A stretch of DNA of 64,000 nucleotides, taken from positions 2,489,001 to 2,553,000 of the forward strand of contig NC_017857.3 of the NCBI RefSeq assembly GCF_000260985.4, read 5' to 3'. This DNA comes from Methylophaga nitratireducenticrescens. Its GTDB lineage: Bacteria; Pseudomonadota; Gammaproteobacteria; Nitrosococcales; Methylophagaceae. The position numbers and the translations under genes are program-made. Shown piece by piece: positions 42,177 to 52,354 of the stretch. Within the stretch, counting starts at the first letter, position 1. Every line of letters starts with the position of its first letter. Under the pieces are notes generated by a model. The model saw nothing but the letters and a program-made list of their open reading frames with translations, ran no database searches and was not told where the DNA came from.

Positions 42177-42462
42177 GGCATCCTTCCCAGAATCAAAAAT
42201 AGTATTATCCTTGAAAGCTTACCATTCATCGAGTCAGGCTTGATTTTAGTAGATACGGATCGGTCAAAATCAGGTTATTGCTTGCAAAGCGATTGACGCA
42301 TTGAAAAAATATAATCGACAAGGCTTTTTACCGGTTGTTCATCTCTACTATTAATGACAAGAAACGCTTTTAACTTATTACAAAGCAACATGCCGGAGTC
42401 CGTTGATGCTATTATAATTCGCTTTTTATTAAGCCAAAAATAAGCCTCAAAAGGAGGTCCTT

Positions 42463-42864
42463 TTGAATCACGCACATTACTTTAAACGCAATATGGTCTA
42501 TAGAATCGAGTCGGATAGCGTCTCTGCCATAGATGTTCAAGAAAGCAATAGCACTATTCCACTCGAACCATGGATGGGTGTAATCGTCACTCTCGCAGAT
42601 GGTCAGCATACTATCGCTGAACTCATTCAGCATATGGCCAGACAGTACCCTGATGGTGCCCCAGAAAATATGGTCGATACCATTGAGTCGATAATCACGC
42701 GCCTTATTAAAAGCAATATAATTGAACTAACACCACGCCCTACTATGCTTCCCTATTATTTGCGTGTTGCCTTTGATGATCAGGATCCTGAGGAAGCAAC
42801 AAAAAAGATGATTCAAGATGGTTTTATTCAATTGCCTGGGAATAAGTTGACTGGGCCATCGTAA
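42463..42864 (+). CDS. PqqD-like protein (RiPP recognition element domain)
   Basis: The 133-residue protein has a PqqD-type winged fold at about 8-88: NMVYRIESDSVSAIDVQESNSTIPLEPWMGVIVTLADGQHTIAELIQHMARQY...VDTIESIITRLIKSNIIEL. PqqD domains bind precursor peptides and hand them to radical SAM enzymes. A C-terminal extension of about 45 residues is unfamiliar. The start is TTG, preceded by a perfect AAGGAGG 5 bases away. It is the first of three same-strand genes, with a 135-base gap before the second. Confidence 0.78.
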   Translation: MNHAHYFKRNMVYRIESDSVSAIDVQESNSTIPLEPWMGVIVTLADGQHTIAELIQHMARQYPDGAPENMVDTIESIITRLIKSNIIELTPRPTMLPYYLRVAFDDQDPEEATKKMIQDGFIQLPGNKLTGPS

Positions 42865-42999
42865 GGTTTATATTCCAACCCTTCAGCAACAGGGCTAACC
42901 TTCAAAATACCATGTCTAATTAGTCCGTATTTTAAGTCTGTCTTAAGATTTCATTGATATTCTTAGGCTAATGTAGCTAGTACATGGTGAATATCTATA

Positions 43000-43512
43000 A
43001 TGAATGATCCGAATTTTCATAGTGGTGAACTCGAAGCACAGGAAAAATGGAATACTGCTTATTACTGGGATAAACCACGTCGAAACAAACTTCTCTGGAA
43101 CCACATTCCTGAGCCCTTTTTCTACCGAATAGAGCAGGCTGAGTTTTTCTTTTTAGCAACCAGTGATAATCAAGGAAAATGTGATTGTTCCTTTAAAGGT
43201 GGTGGCCCTAATCTTATCCGCATGTTAGATACCAAGCACCTTGCCTTCCCGGACATCGATGGCAACGGTGCCTTTATGAGTATTGGCAATATTATTCAAA
43301 ACCCTCATGTTGGCTGTTTGTTTATAGACTTCTCAACTGGAGAACGTTTGCGGGTTAATGGTAAAGCAAGCATCCATACAGAGGGGGAAGTTAAACGTTT
43401 ATTCCCGACCTATCCACGTGCAATATTAGTCGAAATAGAGCAGGTTGTTCCTAATTGCTCAGCACATATTCCAAGACTAGTTCCTGAAAAACAGCATCAT
43501 GAAACCGTATAA
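43000..43512 (+). CDS. pyridoxamine 5'-phosphate oxidase-family (PPOX) flavoprotein
   Basis: The 170-residue protein shows a split-barrel flavin-binding pattern: FFFLATSDNQGKCDCSFKGGGPNLIRMLDTKHLAFPDIDGNGAFMSIGNIIQNPHVGCLFIDFSTGERLRVNGKASI. Such proteins use FMN, F420 or haem and have many substrates. The gene overlaps the radical SAM gene by 14 bases, which implies tight co-expression. Its role next to PqqD and radical SAM proteins is not known to me. Confidence 0.8.
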   Translation: MNDPNFHSGELEAQEKWNTAYYWDKPRRNKLLWNHIPEPFFYRIEQAEFFFLATSDNQGKCDCSFKGGGPNLIRMLDTKHLAFPDIDGNGAFMSIGNIIQNPHVGCLFIDFSTGERLRVNGKASIHTEGEVKRLFPTYPRAILVEIEQVVPNCSAHIPRLVPEKQHHETV

Positions 43513-44428
43513 AGTCGCAGTTAACTTTGAGTGGACAAGTAAGTGCAACGCTCGTTGCAGTATGTGTCCACAAGGCCTAATTGAGCATCCTCAATTGATG
43601 AAAGAGGATATTTTTTATAATTCCCTTGGTCGAATTAATACTGATGATGTTTTTCGTACTGTAATTGCTGGATATGGGGAACCGACTTCCCATCCAAAGT
43701 TTATGGAATACACCTCTGCAATAGGTGACCATCCTGCACGCTTTGATATGGTTACCAACGGACAGCTTCTTGATAAAAAACGCATAAAACATATAGATGG
43801 CAAGTTAGAACTTTTAATGCTGTCATTTTCAAGTATCGATCCTCGCGTATATAAGCGGGTTCATGTCAATTTAGACCATGAAAAAGTTAAAGAAAACATA
43901 ATACTTGCACAAAAGTATCTCAGTAATACGCAACTTGGCATTAGCCTTACACCTCTCGTCGAATGTATCGACACCTTACCTGAAACGATTTCATGGTTAA
44001 AAAAACATGGTGTTAAATTACTCACAATGTCACCCACGCTCTATAACCGTGCGGGCGCAATGAGTGAACATAAGCAATCAACCAAAAATTTAAGAAATAT
44101 TATTGATGAATACCATTTACGTTCACAGGAGTTAGATTTCGTTCCATCAATAAAGGATGCCCTTAAACAAAAGTGGAAAAACAAATTCAAATGTTCACCA
44201 AGAAACAGTGATTTGTTCATTGCTGCAAGCGGGGATTACTTATATTGTTACAATGACATAGCACATAAGCATGTGTTATCAAATATAAATTTGATGAGTA
44301 TTCGACAGGTTTTATTATTAAGAGAACAAACAGGCCTTCTCCTAGAAATTTGTGATCAGTGTAATATGCTGAACCGCTATAAATTCCGTGAAAGTCTTCA
44401 AGTAATAAAAAACAAGCTATTGAGTTAA
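43499..44428 (+). CDS. radical SAM protein with SPASM/twitch-like C-terminus
   Basis: The 309-residue protein has the [4Fe-4S]-SAM motif CNARCSMC (Cys16, Cys20, Cys23), AGYGEPTSHP (about 58-66) in the GGEP position, and a TIM-barrel core. The C-terminal part has FKCSP (Cys232), YLYCYND (Cys250) and CDQC (Cys285, Cys288), enough to bind one auxiliary cluster as in twitch/SPASM domains. These domains are typical of peptide-modifying and anaerobic maturase enzymes. Together with the PqqD-like protein this suggests a peptide substrate. The substrate is unknown. Confidence 0.82.
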   Translation: MKPYKVAVNFEWTSKCNARCSMCPQGLIEHPQLMKEDIFYNSLGRINTDDVFRTVIAGYGEPTSHPKFMEYTSAIGDHPARFDMVTNGQLLDKKRIKHIDGKLELLMLSFSSIDPRVYKRVHVNLDHEKVKENIILAQKYLSNTQLGISLTPLVECIDTLPETISWLKKHGVKLLTMSPTLYNRAGAMSEHKQSTKNLRNIIDEYHLRSQELDFVPSIKDALKQKWKNKFKCSPRNSDLFIAASGDYLYCYNDIAHKHVLSNINLMSIRQVLLLREQTGLLLEICDQCNMLNRYKFRESLQVIKNKLLS

Positions 44429-44803
44429 TTAAAGGTAAGCATCCCTGAGGTCTTAACTTAATAGCCTAACTTCACATATGAGGCTGACACATTTATTTTG
44501 TGCACACCTGTTCGCCAACCATCGCTGGTCAAAAATTACCAACAACGATATATCTTCTTTACACCAAAGACGCGACCAATAGTGAGATTCCGGTCGATCA
44601 AAACGATAGTTATGATGCAGAGACAACCTCACCGCTGACTTTCAAAGTAGCACCGGCCATATATGTAAAACTGACTGAATCGTTGTCTAGCGGTTAATAT
44701 CAAATGAACGGTGCATTTCCGTACTTCGTGAGAATATTCCAACCTTTTGTTCATAAGCTAACTCTCACGAGAAAGCTCGTCTCTGATAACCCGGGCGAAT
44801 TGA
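44429..44803. other. stretch downstream of the radical SAM gene with a possible gene fragment
   Basis: A 65-codon frame at 44500-44697 on the plus strand (GTG start, no clear ribosome-binding site) encodes TIAGQKLPTTIYLLYTKDAT...PLTFKVAPAIYVKLTESLSSG. The alternating polar and hydrophobic residues look like beta strands of an exported protein, but I cannot name a family. It may be the tail of a lost gene. It is not a convincing precursor peptide: it has no leader/core layout and few Cys. Confidence 0.35.
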
Positions 44804-46087
44804 TCATAAGCTCGTGGATCCATCTCTCTCTTTTTGTTGAAAAATCACTGTTACTATTGTTCCGTGACCAAGAGTGCTATCTAGGGTGATAGTCCAGTGC
44901 AATCGATCACAAATTCTTCTAACGATATTCAGTCCTAGTCCTGTGCCCCCAACCTTGGAACTGTAACTACGCTCAAACACTTGTGACAGTTTGTCAGCAG
45001 GGATACCTTCACCTGTGTCGCTGACGGAAAATTCTTTGTCACGGAGGTGAATCCTTATGTTTCCTCCATGAGTATGCTCGATGGCATTTCGCAGCAGATT
45101 GCTAATGGTTATTTGCACCAGATTAACGGGCAGAAATAATTGTGGCGAGCCCACATAATTACGTTCTATCAGCACTGAATTGTCAGCGATCTGGTCTGCA
45201 TAATCTTCCAGACATTGATCTATCAAAGCTACGAGATCGATAGGGCTGTCCTGATAGATCTGGCTGCTTTCTTCGCGCGACAAAAGAAGCGTTGCTTCGA
45301 TGAAGGCAAGCATTTCTGTGCAAGCTCGGTTTATACGTTCCAACGCTCGCTGCGACGCAGGGCTATGAGTATCGGCCGAGAGTACATCCAGGGCGCCCAT
45401 CATCACTGTCAGCGGCGTGCGTAGCTCGTGACTTGCGGCTGCAGTAAAAGATCGCTCCCTTTCGACAAATTTTTCCAAACGTTCCTGATACTTGTCAAAC
45501 GAGGAAGCAATCTGACCGATCTCCGTGCCGACATAATCATCAGCAATACGTAAGCCGGTTTGTCCCGGCTCAATATCAGTGAGTCGCCGCGACAGATTCT
45601 GCACCGGTGCCAATATAGCCCGTGTAGCACTCAAACCCATGACAATCGCCACGATCAATACCAGAAAAAGACCATAGAGAAGCATACGTAATACAGCATG
45701 TTCCTGTGCTTCCCACTCGGTAATATCGTAGGTCAAATAAACAGGACTCCCATTCCATTCGCCCACTTCAACCTGATAAACCGAACCTCCCATCGAGACC
45801 GTGTGATGAGATCCTGGCTCCAACTCAGCAAACTCGGGGGCAATATTTGTGCTTTTCTCACCAATATGAAACTCCCAGCCGGTGAACAATGTATTTTCAT
45901 GATAAGTACCATCATCCAGTTGTGCCGTTAGCACCCGCAACTGCTCAGCCACCATGTCACCGAAAACTCTTGCCTCCAGTTGTGACTTGATGAGCAAAAC
46001 CCCTCCTGCAAACAAAAAACTAGTGACGCTGACGATGAGTACAAGTGCAGCGAGTATTCGAAATTTAAGGGATGCTTTAGATTTCAT
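44804..46087 (-). CDS. two-component sensor histidine kinase
   Basis: The 427-residue protein has transmembrane segments at about 10-32 and 133-155, with a periplasmic sensor region between them, then HAMP, the HisKA box (TAAASHELRTPLTVMMGALDVL) and the HATPase motifs NLLRNAIEH, VSDTGEGIPADKL and GGTGLGLNIVRRICDRL. It phosphorylates the response regulator, whose stop overlaps its start by 4 bases. The divergent RND exporter genes suggest that the signal is a metal ion or envelope stress. No obvious metal-binding cluster is seen in the sensor region. Confidence 0.9.
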   Translation of the reverse strand: MKSKASLKFRILAALVLIVSVTSFLFAGGVLLIKSQLEARVFGDMVAEQLRVLTAQLDDGTYHENTLFTGWEFHIGEKSTNIAPEFAELEPGSHHTVSMGGSVYQVEVGEWNGSPVYLTYDITEWEAQEHAVLRMLLYGLFLVLIVAIVMGLSATRAILAPVQNLSRRLTDIEPGQTGLRIADDYVGTEIGQIASSFDKYQERLEKFVERERSFTAAASHELRTPLTVMMGALDVLSADTHSPASQRALERINRACTEMLAFIEATLLLSREESSQIYQDSPIDLVALIDQCLEDYADQIADNSVLIERNYVGSPQLFLPVNLVQITISNLLRNAIEHTHGGNIRIHLRDKEFSVSDTGEGIPADKLSQVFERSYSSKVGGTGLGLNIVRRICDRLHWTITLDSTLGHGTIVTVIFQQKERDGSTSL

Positions 46088-46767
46088 GGTAGTGATGGCT
46101 CGGCAACCAGTCGGTAGCCCGCTCCATGAATAGTGTGAATCAGTTTGGTGGCGAACGGTTTATCAACCACATTGCGCAGGCTATAGATATGCATCCGCAA
46201 CACATCATTATCGGGCAGCATATCTCCCCATATGTGCTGCTCCAGTTCTTCACGGGTGACAACACGATGGGTATTTCTCATCAACAGCTCTAGCACTTTG
46301 CGTTGCACTGGATTGAGTTCCAACAGCTTACCAGCTCTTGTGGCAGCGAGAGTCTGCGGGTCGTAGTGTAAATCGCCCACTATCAACGTCCGTGGTGTGT
46401 GGAAGCTGCCACGCTTTATCAGTGCCTGCAGCCGCACTTCGAGCTCCTTCACGGAAAAGGGTTTCACAAGATAATCGTCGGCCCCCGCCTGAAACCCTTC
46501 TAACTTATCGTCAAGCTGATCACGGGCTGTCAGCATCAGCACCGGCACATCGTTGCTGCCTTCATTCCGCAGACGCCTGCATACCTCCATGCCATTAAGT
46601 CCCGGCAGCATGATATCAAGGACGATCACGTCATAACGCTCGCTAAGCGCGAGCTTCAATCCATGTGGTCCGGTTGTAGCAAAATCGAGCACATGTCCCT
46701 TGGGTTCGAGATAGTCAGCAATGTTCGCCGCGATGTCGCGGTTGTCTTCGATCACTAGCACTTTCAC
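46084..46767 (-). CDS. OmpR-family response regulator
   Basis: The 227-residue protein has a receiver domain (KVLVIEDNRDIAANIADYLEPKG; phospho-acceptor Asp in DVIVLDIMLPGLNG; LMLTARDQ; DDYLVKPF) and a C-terminal winged helix (LELNPVQRKVLELLMRNTHRVVTREELEQHIWG...LRMHIYSLRNVVDKPF...IHTIHGAGYRLV). The GTG at 46767 is the likely start because AAGGAGG lies 5 bases upstream; the frame extends further upstream. It is divergent from the RND operon. Confidence 0.9.
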   Translation of the reverse strand: MKVLVIEDNRDIAANIADYLEPKGHVLDFATTGPHGLKLALSERYDVIVLDIMLPGLNGMEVCRRLRNEGSNDVPVLMLTARDQLDDKLEGFQAGADDYLVKPFSVKELEVRLQALIKRGSFHTPRTLIVGDLHYDPQTLAATRAGKLLELNPVQRKVLELLMRNTHRVVTREELEQHIWGDMLPDNDVLRMHIYSLRNVVDKPFATKLIHTIHGAGYRLVAEPSLP

Positions 46768-46863
46768 TGCCACCTCCTTACACCAATCGATAACTTTGTC
46801 AGTCTCCATCAGCGCATGTCAAAAAAAAGTCAACTCAATGGGTTGACAATTTTTTTACAACCT

Positions 46864-46881
46864 CTGACTTAGGCTGACGTA
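46864..46881 (+). promoter_or_regulatory. possible response-regulator binding repeats in the divergent promoter region
   Basis: CTGACTTA and CTGACGTA form a direct repeat with 10-bp spacing, about 40 bases before the exporter start. Direct repeats at 10-11 bp are usual for OmpR-family regulators. A TTGACA sequence lies just upstream. Confidence 0.35.
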
Positions 46882-46923
46882 AAAGCTTTCACCCTCCCAC
46901 TTTATATAGGGAAACTTTACAAA

Positions 46924-48180
46924 GTGAAAAAAACGTACATACAACGCCTTACAACACTGACCATTTTAGTTGTGCTCATGACCACGCCAAATCTGCATGC
47001 TCAGGAACTCGATCATGCGCCACTTACCACGACTCAAAATTTAAATTTTACTACCCTGCTGGAACAAACATTGGCACACGCACCTGAAGCTTTGGAAACC
47101 GAAGTACGGACAGAGCAGGCGCAGGCCATGGTAGATGTTGGTGAAAGCTGGATTGCTGGCCGGCCAAGCGCGCAACTAGACTATATCGATGATCAAATGC
47201 TCAGTGACCTGGGTGAACGCGAGCTCACTTATGGCATCACTTTACCCCTGTGGCGATCTGGTGAGAGGAACACCATGCAAGCCCGGGGACAACAATACAA
47301 TGCCCAGGTAGCAGCGTGGCAAGAAGCTTTTACTTTGAGTATGGCAGGAAGACTACGCCAGGTACTGGCAGACATGCAGGATGCAGATACTCTATTGGCA
47401 ACAGAACAACAGGCTACAGCAGATGCTCGGCAACTATTGTCAATCGCTGAGTCCTTGCACTCTGCGGGCGAAACCGCACGGCGTGATGTTTTGCAGGCTC
47501 GTACACTGTTGCTGGCCCAGCAACGAAATGAACTGGCTGCAGAGGCTGCCCGTGTTGATGCTGAACGTAATTACCAGATGCTGACCGGTCTAACTACGCG
47601 ACCTGCAAAGCCGCATGTCGAAATAATCCAGACAACCGAAGAAGTTAGTCCAGAACATCCTCTATTGCGGCTGTTAAGAAGCGATATTGATCTGGCAGCC
47701 GCCGAAATCGACAAGACAGAATTGGATGCACTAGGCAGCCCCACTCTCAGCATTGGCTCACGTCGACAAAGAGCCGGTAACCAAAACGATTATCAAGATG
47801 CCTTGGCACTCTCAGTAACCATCCCTTTCGGTGGTCGCGCACATGTCAATGCTTCCACAAGTTCGGCGCGCCGAAACAAGGTCGACGCTGATGTGCGCTA
47901 CCTCAATACTTACCGCGAGTTGAACCTGCAACTTCACGAGGTTGCACACGAGCTTTTCACATTGAATGAATCTCTGCCACTCAGCAAGGAGCAGGCCCAG
48001 CTGGCACGTCAGCAGTGGGAGATGGCAAAAACCGCTTTCGTTACTGGCGAAACCGATATAAGTCAGGTAGTCATCGCCTTGCAGCAGACGCGCCGGAGTG
48101 CCCGTGATCTTGAAGTGATTACTCTGCGACAAGCCCGCCTGATTACTGAATTTAACCAAATCGTTGGAGTCCTGCCATGA
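46924..48180 (+). CDS. outer-membrane efflux protein, CzcC/TolC family
   Basis: The 418-residue protein has a signal peptide (about 1-26) and the OEP helical repeat structure, with TLEVITLRQARLITEFNQIVGVLP near the end and IPFGGRAHVNASTSSARRNKVDADVRY in the second repeat. It should form the outer-membrane channel of the tripartite exporter encoded by the next two genes. GTG start. The stop overlaps the next start by 4 bases (ATGA). Confidence 0.85.
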   Translation: MKKTYIQRLTTLTILVVLMTTPNLHAQELDHAPLTTTQNLNFTTLLEQTLAHAPEALETEVRTEQAQAMVDVGESWIAGRPSAQLDYIDDQMLSDLGERELTYGITLPLWRSGERNTMQARGQQYNAQVAAWQEAFTLSMAGRLRQVLADMQDADTLLATEQQATADARQLLSIAESLHSAGETARRDVLQARTLLLAQQRNELAAEAARVDAERNYQMLTGLTTRPAKPHVEIIQTTEEVSPEHPLLRLLRSDIDLAAAEIDKTELDALGSPTLSIGSRRQRAGNQNDYQDALALSVTIPFGGRAHVNASTSSARRNKVDADVRYLNTYRELNLQLHEVAHELFTLNESLPLSKEQAQLARQQWEMAKTAFVTGETDISQVVIALQQTRRSARDLEVITLRQARLITEFNQIVGVLP

Positions 48181-49268
48181 GCTTTTTTTTCCGCAAGAAA
48201 TTCATTGTGGCTGTTTTGGCAATTTTTTCCGCATCTCTCAGTGCTCAGGAGATCGTGCCTATTAACAGTGAAGATGTAACCAGGATGGGGATTGTCTTTG
48301 CTCCAGCCATACCAGTGGACACGAGCTCCGGCGCACGATATGCCGCGACAGTCGTCAACTCACCGGACAGTGCTGCAAGCCTGACAACACCTTGGGCCGG
48401 TACACTGGTTTCATGGAACCTCATACCCGGACAGAGTGCAAGTGCGGGCACTATTCTCGCCACCTTCAGTAGTCCTTCCATCTTGCCACTGCAAAATACC
48501 TGGATCGATGCCGTCTCTGCTCTGGAAGGAGCCGACTTCGAACTGCGCAAAGACGAGTCTCTATACACAGAGGGCGTTATCTCGAAACAGCGTCTGACAA
48601 AGACCCGACTGCTAAAACAACAGGCCATGTCCGCTGAACGCACTGCGCGATCACATCTGGCACAAGGCGGTTTCGATAGAGCAAAACTCGAGGCGCTGCG
48701 CAAGCAGGGTTCGGGCCTGGGAGAATTCTATTTGGTGGTGCAGGAGGATGGCGTCCTGTCCCAGCGCATGTATAACGTCGGCAGCTATGTAGAGGCTGGA
48801 CAAATCATCGCCACACTGAATGCAGGCACTCGCCGCTGGATCAGCGCTCAGGTTCCTGCCAAAGCAGCAGAAGCATTGGAGATTGGCCATCAGCTGAGTA
48901 TTGCCAATAGTGGCGAGACATTGACGTTGCGCCAGAAGGACCTGGTCATCGACAGCAGTAATCAGACTATTAAATTGCTGGCGGAGTTTGATGCCGATAC
49001 TTCCTTCACCACGGGGCAGGTCTTATCGCTTGTGCTGCCACCGGTCGGCAAGGGTGTGCTCATTCCTGACCGTGCGGTCGTGCATACTGGCGGGGAGACA
49101 ATAATTTATGTGCGAACGGCTGCAGGGATTGAAGCACGTACTTTGGAACTGCAATCCATCGGTACTGACTATCTGGCATCCGAAGGCATTGCGGTTGGCG
49201 AAGAGATCGTCATTCAGGGCACCGCCGTTCTCAAGGGTATTCAACTTGGATTAGGTGGAGCTGAATAA
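48177..49268 (+). CDS. RND efflux periplasmic adaptor (CzcB-like)
   Basis: The 363-residue membrane fusion protein has a signal peptide (about 1-22, ...ASLSAQ), a lipoyl-like part (TPWAGTLVSWNLIPGQSASAGTILATFSSP), a helical hairpin (about 115-170), the second lipoyl half (VQEDGVLSQRMYNVGSYVEAGQIIATL) and a beta-barrel end. It links the inner-membrane pump to the outer-membrane channel. There is no His-rich metal-binding region like that of some CusB/CzcB proteins. Its last base is the first base of the next start. Confidence 0.86.
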   Translation: MSFFFRKKFIVAVLAIFSASLSAQEIVPINSEDVTRMGIVFAPAIPVDTSSGARYAATVVNSPDSAASLTTPWAGTLVSWNLIPGQSASAGTILATFSSPSILPLQNTWIDAVSALEGADFELRKDESLYTEGVISKQRLTKTRLLKQQAMSAERTARSHLAQGGFDRAKLEALRKQGSGLGEFYLVVQEDGVLSQRMYNVGSYVEAGQIIATLNAGTRRWISAQVPAKAAEALEIGHQLSIANSGETLTLRQKDLVIDSSNQTIKLLAEFDADTSFTTGQVLSLVLPPVGKGVLIPDRAVVHTGGETIIYVRTAAGIEARTLELQSIGTDYLASEGIAVGEEIVIQGTAVLKGIQLGLGGAE

Positions 49269-52200
49269 TGTTGTCTTCACTGATTCAATGGTCACTCAGC
49301 CAACGGCTACTGGTCTTGTTGCTGTCAATACTGTTACTTGGCTTTGGTGGCCGCGCACTGCTCAATATTCCCATTGATGCCTTCCCCGATATTTCGCCGA
49401 CACAAGTAAAGATCATCATCAAGGCGCCGGGAATGACCCCGGAAGAAGTAGAGTCACTTATCACACAACCTGTGGAAGTAGAATTGTTGGGCATCCCGTT
49501 CCAAACCATGCTGCGCTCCATCTCCAAGTACGCACTGACCTCCATCACACTGGATTTTGAGGACGGTACCGACATCTACTGGGCTCGCCAACAGGTCACC
49601 GAACGACTCAGCAATGTCTGGGACAATCTACCCGGTGGCATCAGCGGCGGACTGGCGCCGATGAGCACACCTCTGGGCGACATGTTTATGTTCACCATCG
49701 ACAATCCATCCATGACACTGGAGGAAAAGCGCTTCCTGCTCGACTGGACCATTCGTCCGGCGCTGCGTAACGTGCCCGGAGTTGCTGATGTGAACTCGCT
49801 CGGCGGCTTTGTGCGCACCTATGAAGTCAAACCTCTTCGTGAAGCCATGAGAGCAATGGGCATTAAGTTGCAGGATATCGCCGACGCACTCAGCACCAAC
49901 AACAAAAATGATGGTGCCGGACGGATCGATCAGGGAGAGGAAGTCATTCTGGTTCGCGTAGAAGGGGCGATTAACGGCTTTGAAGACATCAGCAATACGT
50001 ACGTCGTAAATGCTGAGGGCGATCGCATTCCGCTATCAGAAGTGGCACGTATCACCACGGGTAGTATGGAGCGCTACGGCGCGGTTACCGCGGATGGTGG
50101 AGCGGAAGCCGTACAGGGCTTGGTGATCGGGCTGCGTGGAGCCAATTCCCGTGAAGTTGTGCAGGGCGTTAAATCCAGGCTGCAGGCGTTGCAAGATACC
50201 TTACCAGAAGGCACGCAGATCAGAGTCTTTTATGACCGTACGGTACTGATCGAAAGTGCTGTAGGCACAGTATCTTCTGCCCTTCTGGAAGCCGTGGTTT
50301 TGGTTATCATTCTGCTTGGTTTGTTCCTTGGCAATGTGCGTGCCGCACTTACTGTGGCTGTCATCCTGCCCTTATCAGCCTTGTTCACGTTTCTCATGAT
50401 GGGAAATATGGGGATGTCAGCCAATCTGATGAGCCTGGGGGGACTGGTTATTGCGATCGGCATGCTGGTCGACTCATCCATCGTGATCGTCGAAAACATT
50501 GTGTCATCACTTGCGCATCAGCGCGGCACACGCCGACTGCCACACCTGCATATTATCTACCGTGCCGTGCGGGATGTGGCGGCCCCTGTGACCTCCGGTA
50601 TCATCATCATTGTCATCGTGTTCCTGCCGCTACTGACACTGGAAGGGCTGGAAGGAAAACTTTTCGGTCCTGTAACGATAACCATCGTCTTCGCCTTACT
50701 TGGATCGCTGTTGTTATCCCTGACCCTGATTCCCGTCATTGCGTCATTCCTTGTCCGCTCTGATGCCCATGCTGAGCCTTGGCTGAGCCGAACCCTGGCA
50801 AAAACCTATAAGCCTTTGTTGCGTAAAGCACTGCTTCACCCCATCGTGGTTTTAAGTGCCGCAGGGGTTTTGCTGGCAGCCAGCTTTGTGGTGTTTCCAC
50901 TGATTGGCAAGACCTTCATGCCCACCATGGATGAAGGCGATATCCTCATTCAACTGGAAACAATTCCGTCGATCAGCCTCGAAGCAAACACTCGCATCGT
51001 GCTTCAGGTCGAACGTGCGATTCTCGAAGAGGTACCGGAGGTTGCACGCATCGTCTCACGTATCGGTTCAGATGAGATGGGCATGGATCCGATGGGACTG
51101 AACGAGACTGATATTTTCCTGCAGTTACGTCCCGTCGAAGAATGGGGCGTCGCGACCAAGGCAGAACTTGAACAGCATCTTCGCGAGGTAATGGATCGTT
51201 TCGTCGGTCTTAATTATGGATTTACGCAACCGATCGACATGCGCGTATCGGAGATGCTCACTGGCTCGCGTGGTGATGTCGCCATCAAACTGTTCGGCCC
51301 CGACCTGACCACACTCAACGCCCTTGCGCAACAGATCGCTACGCAAGTGGAGACCATTCCCGGTGCCATTGATACCTTTGCAACACTCAACGAGGGCGCT
51401 CAGTATCTACAGGTGAGCATCGATCGCATCATGGCCGGGCGGCTGGGGCTGGATGCTGATGCACTGCAGCTTCGTCTGCGTGCAGAGATTGAAGGTGTCA
51501 ACGTCGGCAATGTCATTGAAGGCAGTGCACGCATACCCCTGATGCTGCGCTACGCAGCCATTGAAGGTGATGGTCTGGCGCGTCTAAACGACAGCTTCAT
51601 TGACTTGCCTGATGGTGGCAAGATTCCGCTTTCAGAGATAGCCACTGTCGCCCGTGTTGAAGGACCCATTCTAATTTCCCGTGAATCCGGTCAGCGTTTC
51701 AGTGTTATCCGCACCGATGTGGCAGAACGGGATCTGGTGGGCTTTGTAGAAGATGCACAGGCTCTAATCGCAGACAATGTCGAGCTGCCGGATGGATATC
51801 ATCTGGAATGGGGCGGCGAGTTCGAGAATCAGCAGCGTGCGGCCGCACGTCTAATGCTCGTGGTGCCGCTCGCGCTTGCATTAATTGCACTACTGCTGTT
51901 TCTGACGTTCCATTCCATTAAACAGACGCTGATAATTCTGTCTAACATTCCCTTTGCCCTGACAGGCGGACTGATCGGTTTGTGGGTGACCGGTGAGTTC
52001 CTGTCTGTGCCTGCATCGGTGGGGTTCATCGCTCTGCTGGGTATTGCAGTATTGAACGGCGTGGTGATGATGACCTACTTCAATCAATTACGAGCTAAAG
52101 GTCTGGATATTGCCACGGTGGTAACTGAAGGCGCACTGCGACGGCTGCGTCCGGTGATGATGACCGCTACGATCTGTGCTTTCGGCCTGGTGCCACTGCT

Positions 52201-52354
52201 GCTGGCTACCGGCCCAGGTTCTGAAATTCAACGTCCACTGGCGATCGTCGTGATCAGTGGACTGATCAGTTCCACCCTGCTGACCCTTTTTATGCTTCCA
52301 ATCATTTATAAGGCATTTCATCGTCCCCTCAACAGCTCTGGAGACAGTGTATGA
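49268..52354 (+). CDS. heavy-metal-type RND efflux permease (CzcA/CusA family)
   Basis: The 1028-residue inner-membrane pump begins RLLVLLLSILLLGFGGRALLNIPIDAFPDISPTQVKIIIKAPGMTPEEVESLITQPVE, the pattern of the HME branch of RND permeases. Twelve transmembrane segments and two large periplasmic loops are visible. TM4 contains AIGMLVDSSIVIVENI with the proton-relay Asp. It exports metal ions driven by protons; the ion cannot be fixed from sequence by eye. It is the third gene of the cluster. Confidence 0.9.
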   Translation: MLSSLIQWSLSQRLLVLLLSILLLGFGGRALLNIPIDAFPDISPTQVKIIIKAPGMTPEEVESLITQPVEVELLGIPFQTMLRSISKYALTSITLDFEDGTDIYWARQQVTERLSNVWDNLPGGISGGLAPMSTPLGDMFMFTIDNPSMTLEEKRFLLDWTIRPALRNVPGVADVNSLGGFVRTYEVKPLREAMRAMGIKLQDIADALSTNNKNDGAGRIDQGEEVILVRVEGAINGFEDISNTYVVNAEGDRIPLSEVARITTGSMERYGAVTADGGAEAVQGLVIGLRGANSREVVQGVKSRLQALQDTLPEGTQIRVFYDRTVLIESAVGTVSSALLEAVVLVIILLGLFLGNVRAALTVAVILPLSALFTFLMMGNMGMSANLMSLGGLVIAIGMLVDSSIVIVENIVSSLAHQRGTRRLPHLHIIYRAVRDVAAPVTSGIIIIVIVFLPLLTLEGLEGKLFGPVTITIVFALLGSLLLSLTLIPVIASFLVRSDAHAEPWLSRTLAKTYKPLLRKALLHPIVVLSAAGVLLAASFVVFPLIGKTFMPTMDEGDILIQLETIPSISLEANTRIVLQVERAILEEVPEVARIVSRIGSDEMGMDPMGLNETDIFLQLRPVEEWGVATKAELEQHLREVMDRFVGLNYGFTQPIDMRVSEMLTGSRGDVAIKLFGPDLTTLNALAQQIATQVETIPGAIDTFATLNEGAQYLQVSIDRIMAGRLGLDADALQLRLRAEIEGVNVGNVIEGSARIPLMLRYAAIEGDGLARLNDSFIDLPDGGKIPLSEIATVARVEGPILISRESGQRFSVIRTDVAERDLVGFVEDAQALIADNVELPDGYHLEWGGEFENQQRAAARLMLVVPLALALIALLLFLTFHSIKQTLIILSNIPFALTGGLIGLWVTGEFLSVPASVGFIALLGIAVLNGVVMMTYFNQLRAKGLDIATVVTEGALRRLRPVMMTATICAFGLVPLLLATGPGSEIQRPLAIVVISGLISSTLLTLFMLPIIYKAFHRPLNSSGDSV

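What the first reader, a model, noticed from the sequence alone, without database searches (positions are those of the whole stretch)
42463..44428. PqqD-like protein, PPOX flavoprotein and radical SAM/twitch enzyme in one unit: possible new peptide-modification pathway
Seen: a stand-alone PqqD-type domain, a PPOX-family protein and a radical SAM protein with CNARCSMC plus four C-terminal Cys (232, 250, 285, 288); the last two genes overlap by 14 bases. Known: PqqD domains present precursor peptides to radical SAM enzymes (PQQ, mycofactocin). Inference: the trio modifies a peptide and the flavoprotein does a redox step. I found no precursor, transporter or protease beside it, and I do not know this three-gene combination.
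Basis: partly seen in the sequence, partly recalled or inferred. Interest (0 to 1): 0.75.

Follow-up and report, generated by a model that had tools for sequence, protein, structure and literature searches.

The report
Flavoprotein–radical SAM enzyme gene pair
Two of the three reported genes form a real and rare two-enzyme unit, found almost only in bacteria that also carry a widespread but apparently unstudied small-molecule operon, while the third gene (the PqqD-like one) looks like an unrelated neighbour.

Summary
PPOX and radical SAM (rSAM) genes adjoin in 13 of 13 loci with a close rSAM homologue. The PqqD-like gene is beside none of the other 12; its relatives in 7 other genomes have no PPOX or rSAM gene nearby. 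No short conserved ORF that could be a precursor was found within 5 kb. The rSAM protein has a twitch domain with four Cys; by sequence its best solved relative is BtrN, a small-molecule dehydrogenase, though by fold peptide enzymes rank as high or higher. In two genomes the pair lies inside, or directly behind, an operon T_hemolysin–AMP-ligase–HDO–SDR–TPR. T_hemolysin and HDO are present in 12 of 13 pair-bearing genomes, the window's included; T_hemolysin is in 77 of 398 sampled genomes (Fisher p 1.1e-6 after de-duplication). Best reading: an optional redox module of that pathway, not a PqqD-guided peptide system. The duo is well supported, the operon link is statistical plus two physical cases, and the chemistry is inferred.

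The parts
43000..43512 (+). PPOX-family (PNPOx-like, probably FMN-binding) protein, 170 aa, with a C61-D-C63 signature
   Evidence: PF01243 over cut-off; TIGR04025 E 3e-26 but below cut-off; beside the rSAM gene in 13 of 13 loci; CDC in 13 of 13 pair PPOX against 1 of 17 other PPOX sequences
43499..44428 (+). Radical SAM protein with BtrN-like twitch domain, 309 aa
   Evidence: PF04055 over cut-off; profile hit to BtrN E 2.1e-12; model pLDDT 81.0, pTM 0.84
43544..43567 (+). Codons of CNARCSMC, the CxxxCxxC motif for the SAM-cleaving cluster (C16, C20, C23)
   Evidence: sequence; these Cys invariant in 12 of 12 aligned sequences
44192..44362 (+). Span holding the codons of the twitch cysteines C232, C250, C285 and C288
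   Evidence: sequence; conserved in 11 of 11 sequences that reach it; aligned to BtrN's C-terminal Cys region
42463..42864 (+). PqqD-like protein, 133 aa; judged a neighbour, not a part of the unit
   Evidence: sub-threshold PqqD matches; absent beside the pair in the other 12 loci; present without the pair nearby in 7 other genomes
42200..44900 (.). Low-G+C segment that holds the three genes, probably gained late
   Evidence: 36-42% G+C in windows starting at 42200-44300, against 47-56% further out and 43-44% at the two edges; rSAM gene absent from 23 of 23 other same-genus genomes at E 1e-8

Best explanation
PPOX and rSAM form a two-gene redox module. The rSAM protein is a twitch enzyme: SAM is cleaved at the cluster held by C16/C20/C23, a hydrogen atom is taken from the substrate, and an auxiliary cluster held by C232/C250/C285/C288 takes the second electron, as proposed for BtrN. 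The PPOX protein, probably FMN-bound, either carries out a coupled redox step or passes electrons to or from the rSAM protein. The substrate is most likely an intermediate or product of the T_hemolysin–AMP-ligase–HDO–SDR–TPR operon, which in the window's genome lies elsewhere on the same contig (G000:C1, 2032426-2036704). The PqqD-like gene is a neighbour without a part in it. Shown: conservation of the pair, its place in the operon in two genomes, co-occurrence. Inferred: cofactors, substrate and chemistry.
For: Pair adjoining in 13 of 13 loci, overlapping by 1-14 bases in 8, 3-10 bases apart in 4, order swapped in 1. In G053 the pair lies between AMP-ligase and HDO with 4-base overlaps; in L022 it starts 7 bases after the kinase gene that ends the operon. 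T_hemolysin and HDO in 12 of 13 pair-bearing genomes (own; G053; MAGs), against T_hemolysin in 77 of 398 sampled genomes; Fisher p 1.1e-6 with near-duplicates counted once. Profile relation to BtrN over core and twitch Cys; four twitch Cys conserved in 11 of 11. BtrN's auxiliary cluster is held by four Cys and BtrN does a two-electron oxidation (PMC9012708, passages).
Against: In 11 of 13 loci the pair is not physically linked to the operon; G452 has the pair and neither operon marker, though it is a MAG of unstated completeness. In G453 T_hemolysin and HDO lie on different contigs and AMP-ligase was seen on neither stretch. Most operon-bearing genomes lack the pair: 0 of 20 inspected loci, and no genome of the 398-genome sample other than the own one has the rSAM gene at E 1e-25. 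Distances of rSAM and operon proteins do not correlate once near-duplicates are left out, nor do those of rSAM and PPOX. Fold ranking favours anSME, SuiB and SkfB over BtrN. The co-occurrence test corrects for relatedness only by removing three near-identical genomes to one.
Confidence: 0.5

Rival explanations
1. The PPOX-rSAM pair has its own job, unrelated to the T_hemolysin–AMP-ligase–HDO operon; both are simply common in the same kinds of aquatic Pseudomonadota.
For: 11 of 13 loci show no physical link; one genome lacks both operon markers; no distance correlation without near-duplicates.
Against: 12 of 13 against 77 of 398, including two MAGs named as alphaproteobacteria (L024, L025); insertion with overlapping reading frames inside the operon in G053.
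Confidence: 0.28
2. Maturase: the rSAM protein, helped by PPOX, modifies a protein or builds a metal site, for example in the HDO enzyme, rather than a free small molecule.
For: The best NCBIfam hits of the window's rSAM protein are TIGR04317 and TIGR04311, both named as metalloenzyme maturases, matched by 12 of 12 members; protein- and peptide-modifying anSME, SuiB and SkfB top the fold ranking; in G053 the pair sits next to HDO.
Against: Scores far below cut-off (68.5 of 380 and 50.7 of 400 bits). The operon occurs without the pair in 20 of 20 inspected background loci, so HDO does not need it as a rule.
Confidence: 0.12
3. PqqD-guided peptide modification: the PqqD-like protein presents a peptide to the rSAM enzyme and the flavoprotein carries out a redox step.
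For: Gene order in this one window; sub-threshold PqqD similarity, TIGR03859 E 7.4e-5; secondary-structure order that would suit PqqD in a poor model; rSAM fold shared with peptide enzymes.
Against: No PqqD-like gene beside the pair in 12 of 12 other loci; PqqD-like relatives in 7 other genomes without the pair nearby; no shared short ORF in unrelated loci; PF05402 below cut-off.
Confidence: 0.06

Closest known systems
BtrN (2-deoxy-scyllo-inosamine dehydrogenase, twitch rSAM enzyme)
   Same: Best solved relative by profile (E 2.1e-12), with matched stretches over the rSAM core and the C-terminal Cys region; same CxxxCxxC positions 16/20/23 (BtrN's from PMC9012708, passages); four Cys for one auxiliary cluster.
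   Different: About 40 residues longer; paired with a PPOX protein; by fold it is not the top match (Z 15.3, 211 residues, 3.3 A). Whether it uses a sugar-like substrate is unknown.
TIGR04317 / TIGR04311 rSAM maturases (NCBIfam)
   Same: Best NCBIfam matches of the window's rSAM protein; matched by 12 of 12 members.
   Different: 68.5 of 380 bits and 50.7 of 400 bits.
PqqD-PqqE and other RRE-guided rSAM systems
   Same: rSAM enzyme with an auxiliary-cluster domain; a PqqD-like gene happens to lie upstream in this window.
   Different: PqqD-like gene not kept with the pair; no shared short ORF; four C-terminal Cys, not the seven-Cys SPASM motif (motif as given in PMC6231123, passages).
MSMEG_1061-type PPOX flavoproteins (TIGR04025)
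   Same: Only NCBIfam match of PPOX; 12 of 12 members match.
   Different: 91.8 of 170 bits for the window's protein; CDC signature shared by 13 of 13 pair members and 1 of 17 others; fixed rSAM partner.
Prokaryotic viperins (pVip)
   Same: rSAM core matches the pVip models, E 1.3e-14.
   Different: 43.6 of 180 bits for NCBIfam viperin; four-Cys C-terminal twitch, which viperins lack (recalled).

Membership tests
PqqD/RRE-guided rSAM peptide (RiPP) system | PqqD/RRE protein kept with the rSAM gene | tested here: not met
   0 of 12 other pair loci, best tblastn E 0.81; 11 of the 12 show at least 670 bases upstream of the pair, L016 only 291
PqqD/RRE-guided rSAM peptide (RiPP) system | Short precursor peptide gene shared by the loci | tested here: inconclusive
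   1,324 short ORFs of 20-130 aa within 5 kb (where contigs allow): no match between unrelated loci except shadows inside AMP-ligase genes; genes further away or under 20 aa were not tested
PqqD/RRE-guided rSAM peptide (RiPP) system | Upstream protein scores as PqqD | tested here: not met
   18.2 of 23.4 bits PF05402; 22.6 of 46 bits TIGR03859
SPASM rSAM enzymes | Seven-Cys C-terminal motif for two auxiliary clusters | tested here: not met
   Four conserved Cys only; PF13186 12.7 of 21.5 bits
Twitch rSAM enzymes, BtrN type | CxxxCxxC plus four C-terminal Cys for one auxiliary cluster | tested here: met
   Conserved in 12 of 12 and 11 of 11 sequences; aligned to BtrN; cluster binding itself not tested
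Twitch rSAM enzymes, BtrN type | Two-electron dehydrogenation of a small molecule | not testable with these tools
   Needs enzyme assay
PNPOx/PPOX superfamily (PF01243) | Score over curated cut-off | tested here: met
   42.4 against 28.1 bits
PPOX TIGR04025 | Score over curated cut-off | tested here: not met
   91.8 against 170 bits for the window's protein
Metalloenzyme maturase TIGR04317 | Score over curated cut-off | tested here: not met
   68.5 against 380 bits
Viperin (NF038283) | Score over curated cut-off | tested here: not met
   43.6 against 180 bits

The most novel reading that the evidence does not exclude
The T_hemolysin–AMP-ligase–HDO–SDR–TPR operon makes a small molecule not yet described, and the PPOX-rSAM pair is an oxygen-independent stand-in for its O2-using HDO step (or an extra step beside it), in the way HemN backs up HemF (recalled). 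That would explain why the pair is rare, optional, and carried by genomes that keep their HDO gene.
Probability: 0.15. Interest if true: 0.75.

Novelty: new variant of a known kind. Interest (0 to 1): 0.5.

Why it matters
It replaces a guessed peptide pathway by a testable one: a two-gene redox module tied, by co-occurrence and two physical linkages, to a widespread operon. The operon's marker protein is called 'thermostable hemolysin', yet its constant neighbours (an AMP-forming ligase, a dimetal oxidase, a reductase) look biosynthetic. Finding the product would give a function to an operon whose marker is in about a fifth of the sampled Pseudomonadota genomes (77 of 398), and might reveal a rare pairing of an O2-using and a radical enzyme in one pathway.

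Tried and rejected
Peptide pathway: no longer the best reading after the neighbourhood survey and the short-ORF scan. Phage or plasmid origin: no match in phage records, only partial rSAM matches of 27.5-31% identity in 12 plasmid records, none covering 80% of the query, none in viral contigs. Viperin defence: below cut-off. Wider PPOX family: 46 of 398 sampled genomes hold a PPOX at E 1e-20 (own included); in the 6 stretches inspected (8 genes, 37-42% identity, one in the own genome at C1:1593020) no rSAM homologue lies nearby at E 1e-4. The ten distant rSAM loci L027-L036 have no PPOX with E better than 1; one weak distant rSAM match in G029 (E 3e-10, 27%) was not followed. Co-evolution by distance correlation: the signal (r 0.86 rSAM/PPOX, 0.79 rSAM/HDO) vanished without near-duplicates (r -0.05 and 0.20, p 0.59 and 0.21), so it is not used. 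Promoter/terminator scan: 3 promoter-like sites against 8.4 in shuffles, given no weight. The PqqD-like model was too poor for a fold search. PDB sequence searches found nothing for PPOX and nothing believable for T_hemolysin. The single-sequence scan of species genomes found no relative; the two-sequence scan catches only genes with either of two peptide patterns, so 11 is a lower bound. Literature: (listings; one search showed 20 of 113 papers, 12 of 17) showed no title or abstract start on this pair or operon. In one search the term T_hemolysin was read as 'themolysin' and so tested nothing; PF12261 had no occurrence. Most subscription papers are not held. An Acinetobacter HDO paper (PMC13232832, passages) describes a dtpC-katE operon, a different arrangement.

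Full report
Observation. PPOX and rSAM pass Pfam cut-offs; the PqqD-like protein does not. The segment is low in G+C (36-42% in windows starting at 42200-44300, 43-44% at its edges, 47-56% further out), in third positions too (32-40% for the three genes, 45-57% for four flanking genes). None of the 23 other same-genus genomes searched has the rSAM gene at E 1e-8. I infer a late gain.

Who keeps company with whom. A search of 58 genomes (own included) gave one close homologue outside the own genome, in G053 at 50% identity, and one weak match in G029. In a sample of 398 genomes of the phylum only the own one matched at E 1e-25. A scan of the species genomes with a two-sequence alignment gave 11 close loci, 49-64% identity, all titled MAG, and 10 distant ones. 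With the window and G053 that makes 13 close loci. A PPOX gene adjoins the rSAM gene in 13 of 13: overlapping by 1-14 bases in 8, 3-10 bases apart in 4, and in swapped order 87 bases apart in 1. In the 12-member alignment its identity to the window's PPOX is 56-64%. None of the 10 distant loci has such a PPOX. A PqqD-like gene adjoins 0 of the other 12 pairs (best tblastn E 0.81). Flanks are uneven: 11 of these 12 show at least 670 bases upstream of the pair and L016 only 291, and three contigs are under 4 kb (L019, L021, L026). G053 was searched whole for the PqqD-like protein without a match; the 11 MAG genomes were not.

The PqqD-like gene has its own life. In the order, 8 of 63 genomes hold it, the own one included; the other 7 belong to one other genus of the same family. 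Around these 7 genes no PPOX or rSAM homologue was seen (G034, six loci). By eye the neighbours vary: an endonuclease-like gene in two, a topA-like gene in two, a dnaX-like gene in one. Two of the contigs are under 5 kb and two more genes lie within 0.5 kb of a contig end. G034 has no rSAM homologue genome-wide at E 1e-8; the other six were not searched for it.

No precursor seen. Among 1,324 short ORFs (20-130 aa) within 5 kb of the 13 pairs, where contigs allow, matches between loci (E 1e-3) occur among three near-identical MAGs (L019, L021, L026), plus one pair of antisense shadows of AMP-ligase genes (L012/L022).

The rSAM enzyme. Its profile finds BtrN first among solved structures, with one stretch over the core and a second, weaker one over the twitch cysteines. 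The model (pLDDT 81.0, pTM 0.84) matches SPASM/twitch enzymes: anSME Z 20.5, SuiB 20.1, SkfB 20.0, BlsE 18.6, MoaA 18.4, PqqE 17.1, BtrN 15.3 (211 residues, 3.3 A) (Foldseek likewise ranks anSME first and BtrN 37th). Fold therefore does not decide between peptide and small-molecule substrates. BtrN's auxiliary cluster is held by four Cys and BtrN carries out a two-electron oxidation (PMC9012708, passages). PMC6231123 (passages) warns that fold and function are hard to predict from similarity networks in this subfamily.

The operon link. In G053 the order is T_hemolysin–AMP-ligase–PPOX–rSAM–HDO–SDR–TPR–response regulator–kinase, with 4-base overlaps at AMP-ligase/PPOX and PPOX/rSAM. In L022 the pair starts 7 bases after the kinase gene of the same operon. 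The window's genome has the operon without the pair at C1:2032426-2036704, followed by response regulator, kinase, cupredoxin and FTR1 genes down to 2029344. Of the 11 MAG genomes, 10 have T_hemolysin and the same 10 have HDO; G452 has neither. In 9 of the 10 AMP-ligase, HDO and SDR lie beside T_hemolysin; in G453 T_hemolysin and HDO are on different contigs and no AMP-ligase was seen on either stretch. Total for T_hemolysin and HDO: 12 of 13, or 10 of 11 when three near-identical genomes (93-97% identical proteins) count once. Background for T_hemolysin: 77 of 398 over cut-off, own genome counted; by genus 32 of 213 at E 0.001. Fisher p: 1.1e-6 against genomes, 2.0e-7 against genera. The test ignores other phylogenetic structure.

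The operon itself. In 20 loci that I chose from the 77 to spread over families, T_hemolysin, AMP-ligase and HDO lie together in 20, TPR in 19, SDR in 18, PPOX or rSAM in 0 (E 1e-8). AMP-ligase and HDO are fused in 6 of 31 loci examined, so ligase and oxidase probably act in one line. HDO keeps 13 invariant His, Glu, Asp and Tyr positions in 12 of 12 sequences, among them enough His and carboxylates for a dimetal site. Its nearest solved relative is 3dde, of unknown function; those with known roles are distant (MboA E 7.7e-4, 4-aminobenzoate synthase E 0.003). The passage search of a 2026 HDO review found no 'AMP', 'ligase' or 'hemolysin' (PMC13108848).

Mechanism. Inferred: the twitch rSAM enzyme oxidises or rearranges a molecule of this pathway by hydrogen abstraction, the auxiliary cluster taking the second electron; PPOX supplies flavin chemistry or electrons. 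The CDC signature of the pair's PPOX (13 of 13, against 1 of 17 others) marks a special subfamily whose Cys may touch the partner or a metal. The oxygen-independent stand-in idea is my boldest reading. It rests on logic: HDO enzymes use O2 (PMC13108848, passages), rSAM enzymes are O2-sensitive (recalled), and pair-bearing genomes mostly keep HDO (12 of 13). The isolate names SI047 and SI072 of three MAGs (L017, L023, L024) recall Saanich Inlet, an oxygen-poor fjord (recalled, not checked).

Verdict. What remains is a rare PPOX–twitch-rSAM pair statistically tied to a conserved HDO operon for which I found no description in the library searched.

Noticed in passing
G000:C1:2029344-2036704 (L014:4344-11704); L126-L145: T_hemolysin–AMP-ligase–HDO–SDR–TPR is a strongly conserved gene block (20 of 20 chosen loci have the first three). 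The name 'thermostable hemolysin' fits its neighbours badly.
   Followed up: partly
L131, L133, L136, L144, L145, L073: AMP-ligase and HDO fused into one protein in 6 of 31 loci examined.
   Followed up: partly
L014:4344-5467; L072:14996-16178; L077:5760-6873: A cupredoxin and an FTR1-type iron permease gene follow the operon's kinase gene in the own genome, G456 and G453, hinting at an iron link.
   Followed up: no
L069, L102-L107: Family of about 125-residue PqqD-like proteins in one sister genus, in varied surroundings, of unknown role.
   Followed up: partly
L109:7878-8809: G167 has a PPOX with the same CDC signature (about 41% identity), followed by a 131-aa ORF at a contig end.
   Followed up: no
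window 42444-42467: The ribosome-binding site and TTG start of the PqqD-like gene lie in an inverted repeat that also scores as a terminator-like site on the other strand.
   Followed up: no
window 44804-52354: A histidine kinase/response regulator pair (-) divergent from genes that by eye read like a TolC/CusB/CusA-type efflux pump (+); looks ordinary (pump genes named by eye only).
   Followed up: no
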